Source: an uncultured Acetobacteraceae bacterium
Lineage (GTDB): Bacteria; Pseudomonadota; Alphaproteobacteria; Acetobacterales; Acetobacteraceae
Direction: 5' to 3'
Assembly: GCA_937873225.1 (NCBI GenBank)
Contig: CALMVN010000289.1
Span: forward strand, 1-38,459
DNA: 38,459 nt
The translations under genes and the position numbers were made by a program. Under the pieces are notes generated by a model that did not search any database, was not told the DNA's origin, and worked only from the letters and a program-made list of their open reading frames with translations. Positions 16,074 to 24,130 of this stretch are shown one piece after another. Position 1 is the stretch's first letter. Every line of letters begins with the position of its first letter.

Positions 16074-16909
16074 GCCGGATCGCCGCCCGGTTCGCCGTTC
16101 TCCGGGCCGAGAACCGCGGCGCGCTGATCCCGTTCCTCGAGGCCGGCGACCCGGACCTCGCCACCGCCGAGGCGATCCTGCGCGGCATGCCCGACGCGGG
16201 GGCGGACCTGATCGAGATCGGCGTTCCCTTCACCGATCCGATGGCGGACGGCCCGATCATCCAGGCGGCATCGAAGCGCGGCCTGGCCGCAGGCGCCACT
16301 CTCGGCCGCACCCTGGAGATGGTCGCCCGCTTCCGTGCCGTCGATGCCGACACGCCGGTGGTGCTGATGGGCTACCTCAACCCGATCGACAGCTATGGCC
16401 CGGCCCGGTTCTGCGCCGACGCGGCGGCGGCTGGCGTGGACGGGCTGATCGTGGTCGACCTGCCGTCGGAGGAGGCCGACCTGCTCGAGGCCGACGCCCA
16501 CGCGCACGGCCTCGACATCATCCGGCTGGTGGCGCCGACCACCGCCGATGCCCGCCTGCCGCTGGTGCTGAACGGCAGCTCGGGCTTCATCTACTACGTC
16601 AGCATCACCGGGGTGACCGGCACCCGGTCGGCCTCCGACGCGGATCTGGCGGCGGCGCTGCCGCGGCTGCGCGCGGTGACGGACCTGCCGGTGGCGATCG
16701 GCTTCGGCATACGCAGCCCGGCCCAGGCGGCGTCCGCGGTGCGGATCGCCGACGGCGCGGTGGTCGCATCATCGCTGATCGAGACCCTGGCCCGCAGCCT
16801 CGACGCGCAGGGCCATGCCGGGCCCGACACGGTGCGGCTGGTGCTGGACCAGGTCAGGATGCTGGCGGACGGAGTCCGCGACGCGCGTACCAGGGAGATC
16901 GTGGCATGA
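16070..16909 (+). CDS. trpA: Tryptophan synthase alpha chain
   Basis: TrpA splits indole-3-glycerol phosphate into indole and glyceraldehyde-3-phosphate and channels indole to TrpB. With GTG 16070 as start, the catalytic residues fall at Glu49 (DLIEIGVPF) and Asp60 (DPMADGP), exactly the numbering known from the enterobacterial enzyme, which supports this start. The phosphate-binding segment IGFGIRSP is in the C-terminal half. The protein has 279 residues. It overlaps trpB by four bases and accD as ATGA. Confidence 0.97.
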
Positions 16910-17775
16910 GCTGGCTGACCACCTATGTGCGGCCCAAGGTCCGCAACCTGCTCGGCAAGCGCGACGTGCCGGACAACCTGTGGACCCAGTGCGAATCGTG
17001 CAACCAGATGATCTTCTCCCGCGAGCTGGAGAAGGCGCTCAACGTGTGCCCGCATTGCGGCCACCACATGCGGGCGCTGGTCGCCGACCGGCTGGCCTGG
17101 ACCTTCGACAACGGCGAGTGCACCCGGATCGAGCTGCCACGCGCGGCGTCCGACCCGCTCGGGTTCCGTGACCAGAAGCGCTACGTCGACCGGATCAAGG
17201 AGCAGCGCGCGAAGTCGCAGCTCGACGAGGCGCTGGTGGTGGCGCATGGCACCATCGGCGGGGTCAAGGCCGTCGTGGCGGTGATGGCCTACGAGTTCAT
17301 GGCCGGCACCATGGGAGCCGCCCTCGGCGAGGGCTTCGTCGCCGCCGCCCGTCTGGCGGTGCTGCAGCAGGCGCCGCTGATCGTGTTCACCGCGTCCGGG
17401 GGGGCGCGCATGCAGGAAGGCATGATCAGCCTGATGCAGATGCCGCGCACCACCGTGGCGGTGCAGATGGTGAAGGATGCCGGCCTGCCCTACGTCGTGG
17501 TGATGACGAACCCTACCACCGGCGGCGTCACCGCCTCCTTTGCCATGCTGGGCGACGTCCAGATCGCCGAGCCCAACGCGCTGATCGGCTTCGCCGGGCC
17601 GCGGGTGATCGAGCAGACGGTGCGCGAGACGCTGCCGGACGGGTTCCAGCGCTCGGAGTTCCTGCACGAGCACGGCATGCTCGACATGGTGGTGAAGCGG
17701 GGCGAGCTGCGCGAAACGCTTGGCCGCCTCCTGCTGCTGCTGAGCGTCAAGGACGCCTTCGCCCACGCCGCCTGA
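16906..17775 (+). CDS. accD: Acetyl-CoA carboxylase carboxyltransferase subunit beta
   Basis: AccD carries the zinc ribbon and half of the carboxyltransferase site that makes malonyl-CoA for fatty acids. Zinc ligands are Cys29, Cys32, Cys48 and Cys51 (CESC...CPHC). The crotonase-fold part has SGGARMQEGMISLMQM and NPTTGGVTASFAMLGD, then the ALIGFAGPRVIEQT segment. The 289 residues match the family. The ATG overlaps the trpA stop and folC follows 13 bases later; trpA-accD-folC is a familiar alphaproteobacterial order. Confidence 0.97.
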   Translation: MSWLTTYVRPKVRNLLGKRDVPDNLWTQCESCNQMIFSRELEKALNVCPHCGHHMRALVADRLAWTFDNGECTRIELPRAASDPLGFRDQKRYVDRIKEQRAKSQLDEALVVAHGTIGGVKAVVAVMAYEFMAGTMGAALGEGFVAAARLAVLQQAPLIVFTASGGARMQEGMISLMQMPRTTVAVQMVKDAGLPYVVVMTNPTTGGVTASFAMLGDVQIAEPNALIGFAGPRVIEQTVRETLPDGFQRSEFLHEHGMLDMVVKRGELRETLGRLLLLLSVKDAFAHAA

Positions 17776-17788
17776 TCCGTTTGCCGCC

Positions 17789-19105
17789 GTGATGTCGCCT
17801 GTTCCGCTGGCCTTGTCGCCGGAGTTCAGCGGCCGCAGCGGCGTGGTGCTGGAACGGCTGCAGCGCCTCTACCCGGTGCTGATCGACCTCAGCCTCGGTC
17901 GGCTGGAGGGTCTGCTGGGCAAGCTCGGCCATCCGGAGCGGCGCCTGCCGCCGGTGATCCACGTCGCCGGCACCAACGGCAAGGGCAGCACCTGCGCCCA
18001 TCTGCGCGCCATAGCCGAAGCGGCGGGACTGGTCGTGCATGCCACCACCAGCCCGCATCTGGTGGACGTGACGGAGCGGTTCAGGGTCGCCGGTCGCCTG
18101 GTGGACGAGGCGGCGCTGATCGCTGCGCTGGAACGCATCGAGGCGGTCAACGCGGGTGACCCGATCACGGTGTTCGAGGTGCTGACCGCCTGCGCCTTCC
18201 TCCTGTTCGCCGAGACGCCGGCGGACCTCGCGATCATCGAGGTCGGGCTCGGCGGCCGGTTCGACGCCACCAACGTGCTGCAGGCGCCGGCCGCCTCCGT
18301 CATCACCGCCTTGTCGATGGACCACGAGGCGTTCCTCGGCGACACGCTGGCGGCGATCGCTCGCGAGAAGGCGGGCATCATCAAGCCGGGCTGCCCGGTC
18401 GTCACCGGACGCCAGCCAGTCGAGGCGCTGGCTGTGATCGAGGCGGAGGCTGCGCGCCGAGGTGCACCCCTGCTGCTGCGCGACCGCGACTGGCACCTTC
18501 ATCCCGGCCCGGATGGCCTGCGCTACCGCGATGCCGCCGGCACCCTCGATCTGCCGTGTCCCGGCCTGCTCGGGCCGCACCAGCATGACAACGCCGGGCT
18601 CGCGGTCGCCACCCTGCGTGCCGTCGGGCTCGCCCTGCCGAACGCCGCCTATGCCGGGATCGCCCATACGCGCTGGCCGGCACGCCTGCAGCGCCTGCAT
18701 GGCCACCTGGCCAGGACCCTGCCGCCGGGATGGGAACTGTGGCTCGACGGCGGCCACAATCCCGGCGCCGGCTCCGCTCTGGCCGGTGTCCTGGAAGGCT
18801 GGACCGACCGTCCGGTCCACCTTCTGGTCGGCATGAAGCAGACCAAGGATCCCACCGGCTTCCTCCGGCCCCTGCTGCCGCTGGCCGCTACCGTCTGGGC
18901 GGTTGCCGAGCCTGGCCAGCACCTTGCCCTGCCGGTGGAGACGATCGTCGCCGCCTCGCACGGCCGCGCCAGGCCGGGTCCGACGGTGGCCGAGGTGCTG
19001 CCCCGTCTGTCCGGATCCGACGTTCCGCCCGGCCGCGTGCTGATCTGCGGCAGCCTCTACCTTGCCGGAGAGGTGCTGAAGGCGGATGGCTGGACCCCCG
19101 ACTGA
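17789..19105 (+). CDS. folC: Bifunctional folylpolyglutamate synthase/dihydrofolate synthase
   Basis: FolC adds glutamate to dihydropteroate and then further glutamates to folates, using ATP. The Mur-ligase P-loop HVAGTNGKGS lies at 58-67. TSPHLVDVTERF binds folate and magnesium, IIEVGLGGRFDATN is the second signature, and DGGHNPGAG begins the C-terminal ligand domain. The first two codons are GTG and ATG, so the true start is 17789 or 17792; the product is about 438 residues. It closes the trp/accD group. Confidence 0.96.
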   Translation: MMSPVPLALSPEFSGRSGVVLERLQRLYPVLIDLSLGRLEGLLGKLGHPERRLPPVIHVAGTNGKGSTCAHLRAIAEAAGLVVHATTSPHLVDVTERFRVAGRLVDEAALIAALERIEAVNAGDPITVFEVLTACAFLLFAETPADLAIIEVGLGGRFDATNVLQAPAASVITALSMDHEAFLGDTLAAIAREKAGIIKPGCPVVTGRQPVEALAVIEAEAARRGAPLLLRDRDWHLHPGPDGLRYRDAAGTLDLPCPGLLGPHQHDNAGLAVATLRAVGLALPNAAYAGIAHTRWPARLQRLHGHLARTLPPGWELWLDGGHNPGAGSALAGVLEGWTDRPVHLLVGMKQTKDPTGFLRPLLPLAATVWAVAEPGQHLALPVETIVAASHGRARPGPTVAEVLPRLSGSDVPPGRVLICGSLYLAGEVLKADGWTPD

Positions 19106-19171
19106 AGCACTGGTTGCGTTTCCGGCCGCCGAGGTCTTTGCTTGGTCGCACGACGACCGGCGGAGCCTTTG

Positions 19172-20128
19172 ATGCGCAAGGTGATCTTCGACACCGACCC
19201 CGGGGTGGACGATGCGATGGCGCTTTGCCTGCTGGCCCGAAGTCGGCAGCTCGAGCTGCTTGGCGTTTCCACGGTTCATGGCAACGCCGACATCGACACC
19301 GTCACCCGCAACGCGCTGTTCCTGAAGGACCGGTTCGGCTTTGCTGCTCCGGTGGCGCAAGGCTCCGGCGTCACCCTGACCGACAAGCAGGGGCAGCCTG
19401 CGCCGCACGTGCACGGACAGAACGGCCTGGGCGACATCGTCGTTCCGGACCATCCTGATGCCGTGCTGGATGGCCGGCGCGGCCACCGCATGATGATCGA
19501 CCTGATCCGCGAGAACCCGCACGAGGTGACGATCATCGCCGTCGGCCCGCTGACCAACCTCGCCCGCGCCCTGGACAAGGACCCGGAGATCGCGCGGCTG
19601 GCGCAGGGCGTGGTGGTGATGGGCGGCGCGTTCGGCAGCCACGGCCATACCGGCAACGTTTCCCCGGTCGCCGAGGCCAACATCGCCAACGATCCCGAGG
19701 CGGCCGACACGGTGTTCACCGCGTCCTGGCCGGTGACGGTGATCGGTCTCGACGTGACGCAACAGGTGGTGATGGACGGGGCCTATCTGGAGCGCCTGCG
19801 CCGCGACGGCGGCGAGGACGGCCGGTTCCTGCACGAGGTGTCGCGCGGCTACCACGCCTTCCACCAGCGCTCGCGCCGGCTGGACGGCATCTTCGCCCAT
19901 GACAGCCTGGCCGTGGTCTACGCGTTGCGGCCGGACCTGTTCACCCTCAGGCGCGGGCCGGTCCGGGTGGTGTGCGGCGGCCTGGCCGCCGGCCAGACCA
20001 TCCAGAAGCCGAAGGACTCGCCGTTCCCGCTGGGCGCCTGGGATGCGCACTCGGCGCAGGCGGTAGCGGTCGACGTCGATGCCGAGGCGGTGCTGGCGTT
20101 CTTCGCGGGCAGCTTCGTGGGCCGCTAG
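19172..20128 (+). CDS. Nucleoside hydrolase (inosine/uridine-preferring family)
   Basis: A calcium-dependent N-ribohydrolase that splits nucleosides to base and ribose in salvage. The signature DTDPGVDDAMAL, with the Asp cluster that holds Ca2+, is at residues 6-17. VSTVHGNADIDTVTRNAL, VGPLTNLARAL and MGGAFGSHGHTGNVSPVAEANIANDPEAA follow in family order. The distal calcium Asp is in IFAHDSLAV. ATG 19172 has a GGAG site; the product is 318 residues. A TTG ten codons earlier is less likely. Substrate preference is not readable. Confidence 0.94.
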   Translation: MRKVIFDTDPGVDDAMALCLLARSRQLELLGVSTVHGNADIDTVTRNALFLKDRFGFAAPVAQGSGVTLTDKQGQPAPHVHGQNGLGDIVVPDHPDAVLDGRRGHRMMIDLIRENPHEVTIIAVGPLTNLARALDKDPEIARLAQGVVVMGGAFGSHGHTGNVSPVAEANIANDPEAADTVFTASWPVTVIGLDVTQQVVMDGAYLERLRRDGGEDGRFLHEVSRGYHAFHQRSRRLDGIFAHDSLAVVYALRPDLFTLRRGPVRVVCGGLAAGQTIQKPKDSPFPLGAWDAHSAQAVAVDVDAEAVLAFFAGSFVGR

Positions 20129-20227: not shown

Positions 20228-21115
20228 CTAGCGCTTGGCGCCAGGATCGGCGTTCGGGCCGCCGGTCAGCAGGTAGCAGGCGCACCCGGCGCTGCGCGAC
20301 GCGTCCAAATCCGGCTCTACCAGCGACTCCACGGCGATACGGCGCAGCCGCAGCACGGCCAGGTTCGCAGGCCCGTCCAGGATCACGTCGAAATCTTCCG
20401 CCACCACCGACAGCCAGTACTGGACCCCCTGCCGCTCGGTCAGGATGATCGGGTCCTGTGCGCTGACCGGCAGCCCGTTCTCCAGGGCGGCCGCCGCCTC
20501 GATGCCGTTGGTGACGTGATACAGGTAGGAGTCGTTGCGGTCGTTCGGACGAAGGTTGCGCGGGTCGACCTGCTGCAGGAGCATGTCGCGCGGATTGAGA
20601 TGAAAGGAACCGGAAGGAGCTTCCGGTTCCCGGGGCGGATCCGGTTCCGCGACCGGCGCCACCGTGGGTTCGGGTTTCGATGCCGTCGGAAGGCTGTCCG
20701 GTTCGGCCGCGCCGAACAGGTCCGGCTCGCGGTTCGCGGGCTGCACGCGACGCTGGCGTGGTGCCGGACGAGGGGCTGGCGCTGGCGGCTCGTCCGGCTC
20801 GGGCAGCGGCAGCTCGTGGGTCTGCATGTCCGCGTGCGGCGCGTTGCGGCCGCGGGAACGCGCCGCCTCGATCCGGCGGCGCAGTCGTGCGTCGGAAGGC
20901 GGTTCGGCCATGGCAGGGGCGAACTTGGCATCACGACCGACCGCGCGCCAGTAGTGCGCCAGCGCTTCCGCAGCGGAGCGCGCGCTGCCGATCCGACGCA
21001 GGACGCGTCCGGTGCCGTCCTCGATCTTGAACAACGGCCGGTGGCTGACCGGACTGACGAAACCGGCCTGCCTCGCCCGGATCCTGGAGCTGTTCGACAC
21101 TGCGCGTTCGATCAT
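20228..21115 (-). CDS. Unknown protein; Pro-rich linker and possible ART-like C-terminal domain
   Basis: I cannot assign this 295-residue protein to a named family. Residues 25-62 form a small compact segment (RPLFKIEDGTGRVLRRIGSARSAAEALAHYW). Residues 65-170 are charged and proline-rich, probably disordered. Residues 195-285 look like a folded domain: YLYHVTNGIEAAAALENGLPVS, then IILTERQGVQYWLSVV and strands VILDGPANLAVLRLRR. The YHVT/ENGL/LTER pattern recalls ADP-ribosyltransferase-fold proteins (DarT, KptA types), where the His after Tyr binds NAD. It has a good promoter and no signal peptide. The start ATG 21115 lacks a clear Shine-Dalgarno. Two cysteines lie close to the C-terminus (GCAC). 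Confidence 0.75.
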   Translation of the reverse strand: MIERAVSNSSRIRARQAGFVSPVSHRPLFKIEDGTGRVLRRIGSARSAAEALAHYWRAVGRDAKFAPAMAEPPSDARLRRRIEAARSRGRNAPHADMQTHELPLPEPDEPPAPAPRPAPRQRRVQPANREPDLFGAAEPDSLPTASKPEPTVAPVAEPDPPREPEAPSGSFHLNPRDMLLQQVDPRNLRPNDRNDSYLYHVTNGIEAAAALENGLPVSAQDPIILTERQGVQYWLSVVAEDFDVILDGPANLAVLRLRRIAVESLVEPDLDASRSAGCACYLLTGGPNADPGAKR

Positions 21116-21278: not shown

Positions 21279-21542
21279 TCAGCGGCGCGTCCCGGCCGTC
21301 CTGCCCGAGGGTGCGGGGGCCGCCTCGGCGGCCGGCGCCAGGTCCTCCTCCAGCACGGTGATGTGGATGGAGTAGGACACCTCGCCTTCGTCCTCGTCGC
21401 GATGCACGGTGCCGATCACCTCGCGACCGACCGCGATCTCGGTGGTGGCGCCCTTCCGCGGCGGCGCCACGACGTTGACCTGCTCGTTGCCGAGCAGCTT
21501 GCGCAGGTAGGCCTGCACCCGCGCGATGTCCGTTCCGTTCAT
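21279..21542 (-). CDS. DUF3126 family protein
   Basis: A small protein of 87 residues that matches the alphaproteobacterial DUF3126 family. It begins MNGTDIARVQAYLRKLLGN, continues with a basic beta segment, and has the signature HRDEDEGEVSYSIHITVLEEDL. The tail is Ala/Pro-rich and variable. ATG 21542 has AAAGG at proper spacing; an in-frame start 39 bases earlier is not supported. No function is known for the family. It lies downstream of the glycosyltransferase gene on the same strand, 107 bases apart. Confidence 0.88.
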   Translation of the reverse strand: MNGTDIARVQAYLRKLLGNEQVNVVAPPRKGATTEIAVGREVIGTVHRDEDEGEVSYSIHITVLEEDLAPAAEAAPAPSGRTAGTRR

Positions 21543-21649
21543 GGTCGACCTTTCAAGGATGAGGCGGGCCCGAGGCCACACGCCGCGTGGGATAGGCCGG
21601 ATTCGGACACGCTGGAACCGTTATTCGCGCAAGCGGTGGACGCTGCCGA

Positions 21650-24130
21650 TCAGCCAGGGCCGGATCGATGCTGCGTCGTCGCCGGGTCGAGTGCCGCGAA
21701 CAGGCTGGCGGCAAGTGCTGCACGCGAGAAGCGTTCCGACGCGTAGGCGCGCTGGACGGTCGAGCATGCGCTCCAGGCGCGGTCGTCGCGCAACAGCGAC
21801 ACCACGGCCTCGGCCAGGGCAGGTGCGGTGTCGGCAACCCGCGCCGCGTGCTCCAGGCCGGGCAGTCCTTCGGCGCCGATCGTGGTGGTGACCAGCGGCA
21901 GGCCCTGCTGCATCGCTTCCACCACCTTGCCCTTCACCCCGGCGCCGACGCGAAGCGGCACGATCCCGACCCGCGCGGCGCGGTACTGCGCGTCGAGCTC
22001 CTCCTGGTCGAGGCTGCCGGTGACGACCACGCCGTTCCTGCCGAGTGCCCGCACCGATGCGGTCGGATGCGAGCCGGCCAGCACCAGGGTCGCCTGCGGG
22101 ACGGCGGCGCGCACCAGCGGCAGGATCTCGCGCACCAGCCAGGTGGCGGCGTCGACGTTGGGCGGATGGGCGAACCCGGCGACGAACAGGATGGCAGGCT
22201 CCGGCGGCGGGATGGTGCGGGTGCGGAAGCGGTCGAAGCTGAAGGGCACGATCCCGAACGCCGATGCGCCCGGCACCAGCCGCCGCACCAGCGCTGCCTC
22301 GACCTCCGACGGATAGAGCATCACGTCGAACACGCCCCAAAGCCGGCGCTCCAGCCGCTCCATCTCGTCCGCTTCGCGCGCCAGGGACGGGTCGTGCTGC
22401 AGGATCGCCTGCCGGCGCATGCGCAGGTGGTGCACGTCGACGCCGTAGAAGCCGAGCCGCGCCCGGGTGTGACGGAGCAGGTCCGACACGAACTCCACCG
22501 CAACGGTCGGCCGCATGACCAGCACGTGGTCGAACATGGGACCGTTGCGGGCGATCCAGTCGCCGAACCCCTCCGGCAGGCGGCGGTCGAGCACCTCGAT
22601 CCCCATGGTCTCCAGCAGGCATGTGTACCGGTTGTGGGCGCGGTTCTGCGGCCAGAACTTGACCAGCCAGCCGGCGTCCTTCAGCGCAGACAGGATCGCC
22701 ATGGTCGAGCGCGATCCGGCGTCGCGGTCGGGCTCCGGCACGTAGTGGTCGATCACCAGGATGGTGGGGCGTCCACGCGCGTGCTCGCAGGCGCGGATCG
22801 GGTCGACGCTTGGCGCCATGTGGCCTTCGGCCAGCAGGCGCGGCCAGCGGGCCGTCATGCGGTGGCGGTTCACCTCCTGCTGCGCCTTGATGCCGGTGTT
22901 GGGGTCGGTGCCGTGCGACAGGCCCTCGTGGTGGATCACCACGCTGGCCGGCTGGAAGATCACGCGCAGGCCGCGGGCGCGCAGGCGGAAGGCGAGGTCG
23001 ACATCCTCGTAGTAGGCCGGCGCGAAGGCGGGATCGAAGCCGTGCAGCTCCTCGAACAGGTCGCGCCGGAGCAGGATGGAGGCGCCCGACACGTAATCGG
23101 TTTCGCGCAGGGTGTTGTATTGCGGCAGGGCCGGATCGTCGCCGCGCCCGTAGTTCCAGCCGGTGCCGTCCTGCCAGATGATGCCGCCCGCTTCCTGCAG
23201 CCGCCCGTCGGGGAACAGCAGCTTGGAGCCGACCAGCCCGGCATCCGGCAGCGCTTCCGCCACACGCACCAGCGCGTCGAGGAAGCCCGGCAGCGGCTCG
23301 GTGTCGTTGTTGAGGAACAGCAGGTAGCGGCCGCGCGCGTGCAGCGCCGCCTCGTTGCAGTTGTGCAGGAAGCCGAGGTTGGCGTCGCGTCGCAGCAGGC
23401 GCAGGCCGATGACCTCCTCCAGCAGCGCCACCTCCGGATCCCCGGACGCGTCCTCGGCGAGGATCACCTCGAAGGGCGTCCGGGTGTCCGACGCGGCCAC
23501 GGCGCGCAGGCAGCGCAGCGTGGCCGGCACCTGGCCGAAGGCAGGCACGATCACCGACACCACGGGGGCCCGCGCGGTCGGCAGCACCAGGGGCGGCGCC
23601 GCTGAAGGCGGAGGGGCCGGAAGCGCTTCCGGTAGCGTGGGGGCGGAAGCGGCTTCGGGCGGTGCCGCAGCAGGAGGCGGCTGATGATCCGGGACTGCCA
23701 GGCGTGCGGCATGCCATGCCGACCGTGCCCGCAGCCGCGCCGGCCATTGCAGGGTGAGCGTCCACCAGCCGGCCCGCAGGGCACGCCGGCCGGCGCGAGA
23801 CAAAGCCGGATGACGGTCCAGCACGCGGCGCAGAGGCCAGGTGGCACGCCAGATGGCGCTGGTGCGGAACGCCTCCAGATGCTGCGCCAGCAGCGCGATC
23901 TCGGCATCCTGCTGCGCGATCCGGGCCTGCAGCGGTGCCAGGAGGGGAGCGGTGTCGATCGGCTCGGGCGGCGGCGGGTCCGGGAGCGGACGCCGCAGCA
24001 ATGCCTCGTGCGCCTGCTGTGCGTGCCGCACCTCCTGTCTCAGGGCAGCGAGGCGAGCCTCGGCGTGCAGCAGGGACAAGCGCAGCTCCGCCCGCTCGGC
24101 CTCGTTCTCGTCCGGGACGCAGGCGGTCAT
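21650..24130 (-). CDS. Two-domain glycosyltransferase (GT2 + GT4) with coiled-coil N-terminus
   Basis: An 826-residue protein with two catalytic modules. Residues 10-95 are charged and heptad-like (ELRLSLLHAEARLAALRQEV), probably a coiled coil, followed by a basic segment and a Pro/Ala linker (148-188). Residues 190-410 form a GT-A family 2 domain with SVIVPAFGQ, ILAEDASGD, the metal-binding LFLNNDTEP and YYEDVDLAFRLRARG. Residues 455-810 are a GT-B family 4-like domain with ILFVAGFAHPPNVDAATWL and GAGVKGKVVEAMQQGLPLVTT. It has no membrane segment. Such fusions build O-antigen, exopolysaccharide or protein-linked glycans. It is a single gene, not a cluster, so its substrate is open. Confidence 0.9.
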   Translation of the reverse strand: MTACVPDENEAERAELRLSLLHAEARLAALRQEVRHAQQAHEALLRRPLPDPPPPEPIDTAPLLAPLQARIAQQDAEIALLAQHLEAFRTSAIWRATWPLRRVLDRHPALSRAGRRALRAGWWTLTLQWPARLRARSAWHAARLAVPDHQPPPAAAPPEAASAPTLPEALPAPPPSAAPPLVLPTARAPVVSVIVPAFGQVPATLRCLRAVAASDTRTPFEVILAEDASGDPEVALLEEVIGLRLLRRDANLGFLHNCNEAALHARGRYLLFLNNDTEPLPGFLDALVRVAEALPDAGLVGSKLLFPDGRLQEAGGIIWQDGTGWNYGRGDDPALPQYNTLRETDYVSGASILLRRDLFEELHGFDPAFAPAYYEDVDLAFRLRARGLRVIFQPASVVIHHEGLSHGTDPNTGIKAQQEVNRHRMTARWPRLLAEGHMAPSVDPIRACEHARGRPTILVIDHYVPEPDRDAGSRSTMAILSALKDAGWLVKFWPQNRAHNRYTCLLETMGIEVLDRRLPEGFGDWIARNGPMFDHVLVMRPTVAVEFVSDLLRHTRARLGFYGVDVHHLRMRRQAILQHDPSLAREADEMERLERRLWGVFDVMLYPSEVEAALVRRLVPGASAFGIVPFSFDRFRTRTIPPPEPAILFVAGFAHPPNVDAATWLVREILPLVRAAVPQATLVLAGSHPTASVRALGRNGVVVTGSLDQEELDAQYRAARVGIVPLRVGAGVKGKVVEAMQQGLPLVTTTIGAEGLPGLEHAARVADTAPALAEAVVSLLRDDRAWSACSTVQRAYASERFSRAALAASLFAALDPATTQHRSGPG

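What the first reader, a model, noticed from the sequence alone, without database searches (positions are those of the whole stretch)
20228..21115. Unknown protein with possible ADP-ribosyltransferase-like C-terminal domain
The C-terminal 90 residues show a YLYHVT...LENGLPVS...IILTERQGVQYW pattern that resembles the NAD-binding start of ART-fold enzymes such as DarT and KptA, behind a long Pro-rich linker. It has a good own promoter and no antitoxin gene beside it. If real, it would be a chromosomal ART of unknown target.
Basis: inference. Interest (0 to 1): 0.5.

Follow-up and report, generated by a model that had tools for sequence, protein, structure and literature searches.

The report
Zur-linked ART-like protein with clamp motif
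The gene belongs to an unnamed protein family, usually encoded right behind the zinc-uptake regulator gene, that joins a worn-down ADP-ribosyltransferase-like domain to a short peptide resembling those that dock on the DNA sliding clamp; this could make it a zinc-linked factor acting at DNA rather than a free-standing toxin.

Summary
The ORF is real (295 aa, minus strand, 20228-21115). The predicted fold of its C-terminal domain (pLDDT 87, pTM 0.82) is ART-like: the best solved matches are DUF952 (CC0527, Z 5.8-6.3) and the NAD lobe of KptA/Tpt1 (best Z 5.5). His200, however, is histidine in only 30 of 55 non-redundant members and changed state at least 6 times on a tree, so a conserved classical ART enzyme is unlikely. 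The larger finding is the context. The family occurs in 68 of 397 genomes of the Acetobacteraceae. In 58 of the 60 members read (the window's included) it follows zur on the same strand; the window's copy is one of the two exceptions, its zur lying on another contig. The Pro-rich linker carries a peptide, Q-x-D-L-[FL] in 51 of 60 and EPDLF here, that resembles the sliding-clamp-binding consensus and is as conserved as the core of the fold ([QE]x[DN]L[FL] in 58 of 60 against 0.2 in shuffles). Best reading: a zinc-regulator-linked accessory protein tethered to the sliding clamp, with a probably non-classical or dead ART-fold domain. Clamp binding and function are untested.

The parts
20228..21115 (-). 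the gene: 295-aa protein 'X' (P0002)
   Evidence: the family's C-terminal domain in 68 of 397 genomes
20933..21079 (-). N-terminal domain, residues 13-61, three strands and a helix; found in part of the family only
   Evidence: AF2 full-length model, mean pLDDT 82-91 in the blocks 11-60; phmmer; weak fold matches HVO_2922 Z 3.4, Rnt1p dsRBD Z 3.2
20801..20815 (-). short motif ELPLP (residues 101-105); similar short motifs recur at this side of the linker in other members; partner unknown
   Evidence: alignment A6, coordinates
20714..20728 (-). EPDLF (residues 130-134), the sliding-clamp-binding-like motif; Q-x-D-L-[FL] in 51 and Q-x-N-L-F in 1 of 60 members
20258..20608 (-). C-terminal ART-like domain, residues 170-286 (the fold matches cover 196-285)
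   Evidence: AF2 model m63c7708f1b85, pLDDT 87.4, pTM 0.82; fold searches
20516..20518 (-). His200 codon; H in 30 of 55 members
20348..20350 (-). Arg256 codon; R in 54 of 55, K in 1
21279..21581 (-). upstream neighbour, same strand: DUF3126 (PF11324); it stands where 58 of 60 members have zur
19142..20128 (+). convergent neighbour: nucleoside hydrolase (PF01156), beside X in the five genus members and in G113

Best explanation
[quoted passage not shown] A C-terminal ART-fold domain, probably not a classical ADP-ribosyltransferase any more and perhaps only binding NAD, ADP-ribose or a nucleic acid, hangs on a disordered linker. The linker carries a Q-x-D-L-F peptide that docks into the sliding-clamp (DnaN) pocket, so the domain is delivered to replicating or repaired DNA. 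In most members the gene would be made together with Zur, so its level would follow zinc status. In the window's genome it has come away from zur and the clamp peptide is weakened (EPDLF). Shown by computation: ORF, family, zur adjacency, motif conservation, predicted fold, variable His200. Inferred: descent by inheritance, co-transcription, clamp binding, ligand binding, zinc-responsive expression, role at DNA.
For: Fold: pLDDT 87.4, pTM 0.82; DUF952 Z 5.8-6.3; KptA/Tpt1 rows from Z 5.5 down to 3.4; pertussis S1 4.5 at best; register LYHVT on LFHGT. Not a classical enzyme: H200 in 30 of 55, at least 6 state changes, while Y199 and G214 are 55 of 55 and R256 54 of 55. zur: next gene upstream on the same strand in 58 of 60 members; 4 of these regulators were scanned and all 4 have Zur as best NCBIfam hit, under its curated cut-off; a Zur-box-like palindrome matching 12-13 of 14 named bases stands above zur in 18 of 44 loci, best shuffle 11 (post hoc). 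Clamp motif: [QE]x[DN]L[FL] in 58 of 60 against 0.2 expected; L133 is one of three invariant residues and D132 one of three nearly invariant ones in 58 full-length rows. Pol IV tails, where clamp peptides sit, lack Q1 and end in DLF in the four genus members whose tail I could read (MPDLF, TPDLF, HGDLF, DADLF), as the X of these species does. The consensus Q-L-x-L-F and its test in Acidiphilium, a genus of the same order: PMC4549789 (passages).
Against: No binding test and no complex model. The Q1 link between X and Pol IV is imperfect: of 24 genomes 16 have Q1 in both, 4 in neither, 2 in X only and 2 in Pol IV only (one-sided Fisher 0.018, not corrected for kinship; the 4 are one genus). DnaE of the window's genome keeps Q1 (QIGLF, read by eye), so the clamp has not changed its taste. 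Position 2 of the motif is never the consensus Leu in 60. E227 and E267 are each E in 47 of 55, so an acid-based catalysis is not excluded. Foldseek E-value is only 0.1 and hhalign probabilities are 7-11%. 26 of 44 zur upstream stretches, the window genome's zur among them, do not reach that palindrome score, some because the stretch was cut short. The window's own copy has lost the zur neighbour, and no palindrome was found above it or DUF3126 (8 of 14, chance level).
Confidence: 0.42

Rival explanations
1. The linker motif does not bind the sliding clamp but another partner, such as Zur itself, or folds back on the ART-like domain; X is then a Zur co-factor or anti-repressor that senses a nucleotide.
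For: zur adjacency in 58 of 60 is stronger than any link to replication genes; I recognised no replication or repair gene among the shared neighbour clusters, which were not all annotated.
Against: The motif resembles the clamp consensus and the Pol IV tails of the genus; in the full-length model the linker has pLDDT 47-72 and no secondary structure, so no confident docking on the own domain is seen. In the window's genome and G004, X persists away from zur.
Confidence: 0.25
2. X is an active ADP-ribosyltransferase in the branches that keep His200 (and often Arg220, the column of a KptA invariant Arg), and has decayed in the others; its target would be DNA or a DNA-bound protein.
For: H200 and R220 together in 19 of 55; hhalign puts residue 220 opposite KptA R115; E227 and E267 each E in 47 of 55; Mycobacterium DarT modifies Zur sites and raises the Zur regulon (PMC12170906, abstract and passages).
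Against: No triad conserved across the family; the window's protein has H200 but Q220; H changes at least 6 times; no Pfam ART model reaches significance in 55 members (best PTS_2-RNA 0.088 and Tox-ART-HYE1 0.33, one member each); no KptA N-lobe.
Confidence: 0.13
3. One reading: a free-standing chromosomal ART toxin with its own promoter and unknown target.
For: ART-like fold; no antitoxin next door.
Against: One match a genome and the same place behind zur in 58 of 60; H200 variable; no promoter consensus found; no match in PHROGs or PADLOC at E 1 and none in 72,556 plasmid records.
Confidence: 0.05
4. The ART-like match is only a common alpha/beta arrangement and the domain is something else.
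For: Z under 8 and Foldseek E 0.1; hhalign probability 7-11%; the first 26 residues of the domain are outside the match.
Against: 24 of 26 rows are ART folds, RhsP2 and the untitled KptA entries counted so from memory, the other two being Tic22 and lymphostatin; sequence register agrees with the fold match.
Confidence: 0.15

Closest known systems
DUF952 (PF06108), CC0527 of Caulobacter, PDB 2o0q
   Same: best fold match, Z 5.8-6.3 over 80 residues; 2o0q confirmed as DUF952 by profile; hhalign P 0.003, probability 11%
   Different: the DUF952 signature (DGFIHFS, WExSRGG, FPHLY) is absent from X; no Pfam match of X to PF06108. Whether DUF952 proteins have a clamp motif or a zur link was not tested
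KptA/Tpt1 RNA 2'-phosphotransferase (PF01885), C-terminal NAD lobe
   Same: Z up to 5.5 over 76-78 residues; LYHVT falls on LFHGT and GL on GI, and residue 220 (R in 34 of 55) on KptA's invariant R115
   Different: X lacks the KptA N-lobe; H200 and R220 are not invariant and the window's protein has Q220
DarT/DarG DNA ADP-ribosylation and the Zur regulon in Mycobacterium (PMC12170906; abstract and passages read)
   Same: an ART-fold protein connected with Zur
   Different: there the ART is an active DNA-modifying enzyme with a DarG partner; the passages read describe no linkage of its gene to zur. X has no DarG neighbour among the ORFs scanned and no conserved triad
Sliding-clamp clients with a Q-L-x-L-F peptide (Pol IV, transposases; PMC4549789, passages read)
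   Same: a Q-x-D-L-F peptide in a stretch predicted without structure
   Different: X is no polymerase, repair enzyme or transposase by any match found; position 2 is mostly Pro, Thr, Asn or Asp; in the window's copy position 1 is Glu

Membership tests
ADP-ribosyltransferase (ART) superfamily | ART fold | tested here: met
   AF2 model and fold matches, moderate strength
ADP-ribosyltransferase (ART) superfamily | conserved catalytic His of the H-Y-E class | tested here: not met
   H200 is H in 30 of 55; at least 6 state changes
ADP-ribosyltransferase (ART) superfamily | match to a curated ART-clan model | tested here: not met
   0 Pfam families for the window's protein at E 1; of 55 members one hits PTS_2-RNA at 0.088 and one Tox-ART-HYE1 at 0.33
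ADP-ribosyltransferase (ART) superfamily | NAD binding or ADP-ribose transfer | not testable with these tools
   needs biochemistry
DarT/DarG | match to the DarT family and a DarG (macrodomain) partner gene | tested here: not met
   no Pfam, NCBIfam or PADLOC match of the window's protein to DarT; no macrodomain among the six nearby ORFs scanned
KptA/Tpt1 | N-lobe plus C-lobe, PF01885 match | tested here: not met
   no PF01885 match for the window's protein and no PF01885 gene found in its genome; its N-terminal domain is beta-beta-beta-alpha
DUF952 | PF06108 match and DGFIHFS/FPHLY signature | tested here: not met
   no PF06108 gene found in the window's genome
sliding-clamp client | Q-x-x-L-F peptide in a disordered stretch, conserved | tested here: met
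   met by the family: Q1 form in 52 of 60, ending in F or L; the window's own copy has Glu at position 1
sliding-clamp client | binding to the DnaN pocket | not testable with these tools
   no complex prediction offered, no bench data
zur operon member | adjacent to and co-directional with zur | tested here: not met
   met in 58 of 60 members but not in the window's genome or G004; the window genome's zur is on contig C138
toxin-antitoxin system | adjacent antitoxin gene | tested here: not met
   neighbours are nucleoside hydrolase and DUF3126

The most novel reading that the evidence does not exclude
A zinc-regulated, sliding-clamp-tethered ART-fold factor: when zinc runs short, Zur lets go of zur-X, and X rides the clamp to newly made DNA, where its ART-like domain reads or writes ADP-ribose (or binds NAD) on DNA or on DNA-bound proteins, so coupling metal starvation to replication. 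It would be a second, unrelated route to the ART-Zur connection reported for DarT in Mycobacterium, here written into the operon.
Probability: 0.1. Interest if true: 0.85.

Novelty: new variant of a known kind. Interest (0 to 1): 0.5.

Why it matters
No model in Pfam, PHROGs or PADLOC matches this protein at E 1, and none in NCBIfam comes near its cut-off. It joins three things that I have not seen joined in the papers searched: the zinc regulator's operon, an ART-like fold, and a peptide of the sliding-clamp type. If the peptide binds, it gives a directly testable link between zinc status and DNA replication or repair in acetic acid bacteria, and a case in which an ART fold was kept while the usual catalytic histidine was repeatedly lost.

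Tried and rejected
Free-standing ART toxin: rejected on linkage, one copy a genome and variable His200. Membership of DarT, KptA or DUF952: features tested and not met (see the table). Mobile or phage gene: no match in PHROGs, PADLOC or plasmids; the viral scan with A3 did not run and was not repeated. Relatives outside the family: of 385 class genomes only G000 and G003 are credible; two more at E 0.006 and 0.008 were left out as chance. The scan of genome contigs with the window's protein alone found none. X hidden behind zur in other genera: of 27 X-less genomes taken (of 329) 24 have zur, and none of their 25 zur loci has an X-like ORF, though one locus ends 132 bases after zur.

A changed clamp preference: DnaE of the window's genome keeps Q1 (QIGLF), so the Q-less form of X and Pol IV in this genus is not forced by the clamp. 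A count of the codon pattern for Q-x-D-L-F in genome G411 gave 27 sites against 8 for the reversed control; most lie in frames that look non-coding to me. Of eight of the 27 ORFs scanned in Pfam, one is a helicase C-terminal-domain protein with the motif near its tail, three are a transporter, a peptidase and a hydrolase, and four have no family. This is weak support. The N-terminal domain's fold stays unsettled (best Z 3.6 to a Lon-bound chain with rmsd 5.6, then 3.4). The Zur-box consensus was chosen after seeing AT-rich palindromes in these loci, so one search is post hoc; its score counts the free base N, so 13-14 of 15 there means 12-13 of 14 named bases.

Rows dropped: 8 of 68 family hits were never fetched; 3 duplicate loci were dropped before the 60; near-identical rows (over 93%) were dropped to reach the 55 of A3; two more near-copies were left out of the 58 rows of A6. 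Both the 60 and the 55 include the window's own protein. Pol IV tails: 25 of 31 loci gave a tail, G001 among the misses; G113 gave no motif and is not in the 24. The tree is a quick one with long branches and 20 open forks. In one member (L054) no ATG, GTG or TTG start lies in the frame before the domain.

Literature, search listings only unless said otherwise: ART with sliding clamp and DarT, 3 papers; Zur, zinc, sliding clamp and ART, 93 papers with 3 of 4 terms, 10 listed; Gluconacetobacter with zur, 17 papers, 10 listed; Acetobacter with zur, 1 paper; DUF952 with ADP-ribosyl, 1 paper. By title none of those listed is on this gene.

Full report
What is there. The frame at 20228-21115 lies on the minus strand and encodes 295 residues; the plus strand there is unrelated. 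It is tail to tail with an inosine-uridine nucleoside hydrolase (19142-20128, plus) and follows a DUF3126 gene (21279-21581, minus). The window's protein has no family at E 1 in Pfam, PHROGs or PADLOC, and in NCBIfam only one weak match, 16 bits against a cut-off of 200, over its linker half.

Relatives. Of 397 genomes of the same family, 68 (the window's included) carry one match each to the C-terminal domain, from 15 of 102 genera. One of these genera is Gluconacetobacter, by shared contig lengths (G399 contig 7 and NZ_JABEQJ010000007.1, both 159528 bases), so the family is Acetobacteraceae. A search of 385 genomes of the class with a 55-row profile found two members of the window's own genus and two chance-level hits. 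I read 60 of the 68, the window's own among them; 8 were not fetched.

Fold. AlphaFold2 on the C-terminal domain with 55 rows gave pLDDT 87.4 and pTM 0.82. Foldseek lists Tpt1 first but at E 0.1. The second aligner puts CC0527 (2o0q) first at Z 5.8 over 80 residues, then KptA/Tpt1 entries from Z 5.5 down to 3.5, pertussis toxin S1 and PltA at 4.4-4.1, RhsP2 at 3.0; two of 26 rows, Tic22 (3.5) and lymphostatin (2.5), are not ART rows to my knowledge. The full-length model gives CC0527 Z 6.3. That 2o0q is DUF952 was confirmed by profile, and DUF952 is listed in the Pfam ART clan (PMC7955679, passage seen). Profile comparison with KptA aligns LYHVT with LFHGT and G214 with G109 over 28 columns, P 0.005, probability 7%; with DUF952 P 0.003, probability 11%. 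Support at fold level is moderate, since a Z under 8 can be a common arrangement and the match starts 26 residues into the domain.

Catalysis. In 55 non-redundant members His200 is H in 30, L in 9, C in 3 and others; within the window's genus three species have YLYH and two WLYW. On a tree built without that column the state changes at least 6 times (quick tree). The column of KptA's invariant Arg (residue 220, Gln in the window's protein) is R in 34; H200 and R220 occur together in 19 and neither in 10. Tyr199 and Gly214 are invariant, Arg256 is R in 54 of 55, and E227 and E267 are each E in 47 of 55. So the shell of the fold is kept and the classical histidine is not. A pseudo-enzyme or binding domain fits better than an ART of fixed mechanism; an acid-based activity is not excluded.

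zur linkage. In 58 of 60 members the next gene found upstream on the same strand is a Fur-family regulator, with possible start codons of X from a few bases before its stop to about 260 bases after it. Four of these regulators were scanned, and all four have Zur as best NCBIfam match, at 99-121 bits, under the curated cut-off of 167. ABC-transporter ORFs of the zinc-uptake type stand on the other side of zur, divergently, in 15 of the 20 neighbourhoods clustered (one substrate-binding protein of L042 and the set in the window's genome were checked, where the permease ORF had no match). The two exceptions to the zur rule are the window's genome and G004, where DUF3126 holds the upstream place. 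The window's genome has its zur on contig C138 beside a ZnuA-like and an ABC ATPase gene; the zur of G004 was not looked for. G113 has zur upstream and the nucleoside hydrolase downstream of X, and so do three members of the window's genus, which joins the two arrangements. Of 27 X-less genomes taken, 24 have zur, and none of these loci has an X-like ORF behind it. A TGTTATANTATAACA-like palindrome matching 12-13 of 14 named bases lies above zur in 18 of 44 loci (best of 30 shuffles each: 11), including three species of the window's genus. It was not found in 26 of 44, among them the window genome's own zur at 10 of 14, nor above the window's DUF3126-X pair at 8 of 14. The consensus was chosen after looking, and in several loci the box runs past the stretch cut out.

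Clamp-like motif. Between the N-terminal part and the ART-like domain all 60 members have a D-L-F or D-L-L somewhere in the linker; taken at the motif itself, 59 have D and one N at position 3. [QE]x[DN]L[FL] occurs in 58 of 60 against 0.2 in shuffled linkers; position 1 is Q in 52, E in 6, A and T once each. In the alignment of 58 full-length rows only L133 of this motif, Y199 and G214 are invariant, with D132, R256 and L283 nearly so. The sliding-clamp consensus is Q-L-x-L-F, and an Acidiphilium clamp, of the same order, binds such peptides (PMC4549789, passages seen). As an internal check I read Pol IV tails by eye: 18 of 25 carry Q1, six do not and one has no motif, while the four tails readable in the window's genus have MPDLF, TPDLF, HGDLF and DADLF, close to the EPDLF, TTDLF, EVDLF and EEDLF of X in the same species. 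Over 24 genomes the Q1 states agree in 20, but the four Q-less pairs are one genus, two genomes go each way, and DnaE in the window's genome keeps QIGLF. So the clamp is the best-supported partner, not a shown one. A second recurrent short motif, ELPLP or LPLEGG-like, lies nearer the N-terminus; its partner is unknown.

N-terminal domain. Residues 13-61 are predicted as three strands and a helix with good confidence. It was found in three of five members of the window's genus, in G113, in G098 and in the Gluconacetobacter group. Fold matches are weak: HVO_2922 Z 3.4 and a dsRBD Z 3.2.

Reading. I take X to be an accessory of the zinc-regulator operon that is brought to DNA by the sliding clamp and carries an ART-like, probably non-classical, domain. 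The report that DarT in Mycobacterium ADP-ribosylates Zur sites and is needed for full Zur-regulon induction in stationary phase (PMC12170906, abstract and passages) makes an ART-fold/Zur connection less odd than it looks, but X is not a DarT. The window's own copy is among the least typical: off zur, and with Glu for Gln in the motif.

Noticed in passing
window 16906-19105, plus: accD (carboxyl transferase with zinc finger) and folC precede the nucleoside hydrolase gene on the same strand.
   Followed up: no
window 21650-24130, minus: A large protein with a family-2 and a group-1 glycosyltransferase domain in one chain, also near X in G004.
   Followed up: no
window 21279-21581, minus: A DUF3126 gene stands at the upstream place of zur in the window's genome and G004.
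   Followed up: partly
L191:1345-1608 minus and L195:1381-1671 plus (genome G411): Two similar small proteins without a Pfam family, each with a QPDLF peptide in the first half and alike beyond the motif.
   Followed up: partly
L203:1-1695 plus (genome G411): Helicase C-terminal-domain protein with NQPDLFEE 65 residues before its end, a possible clamp tail.
   Followed up: no
L090, L119, L117, L100: Pol IV of the window's genus has clamp tails without the usual Gln (MPDLF, TPDLF, HGDLF, DADLF), unlike 18 of 25 tails read.
   Followed up: partly
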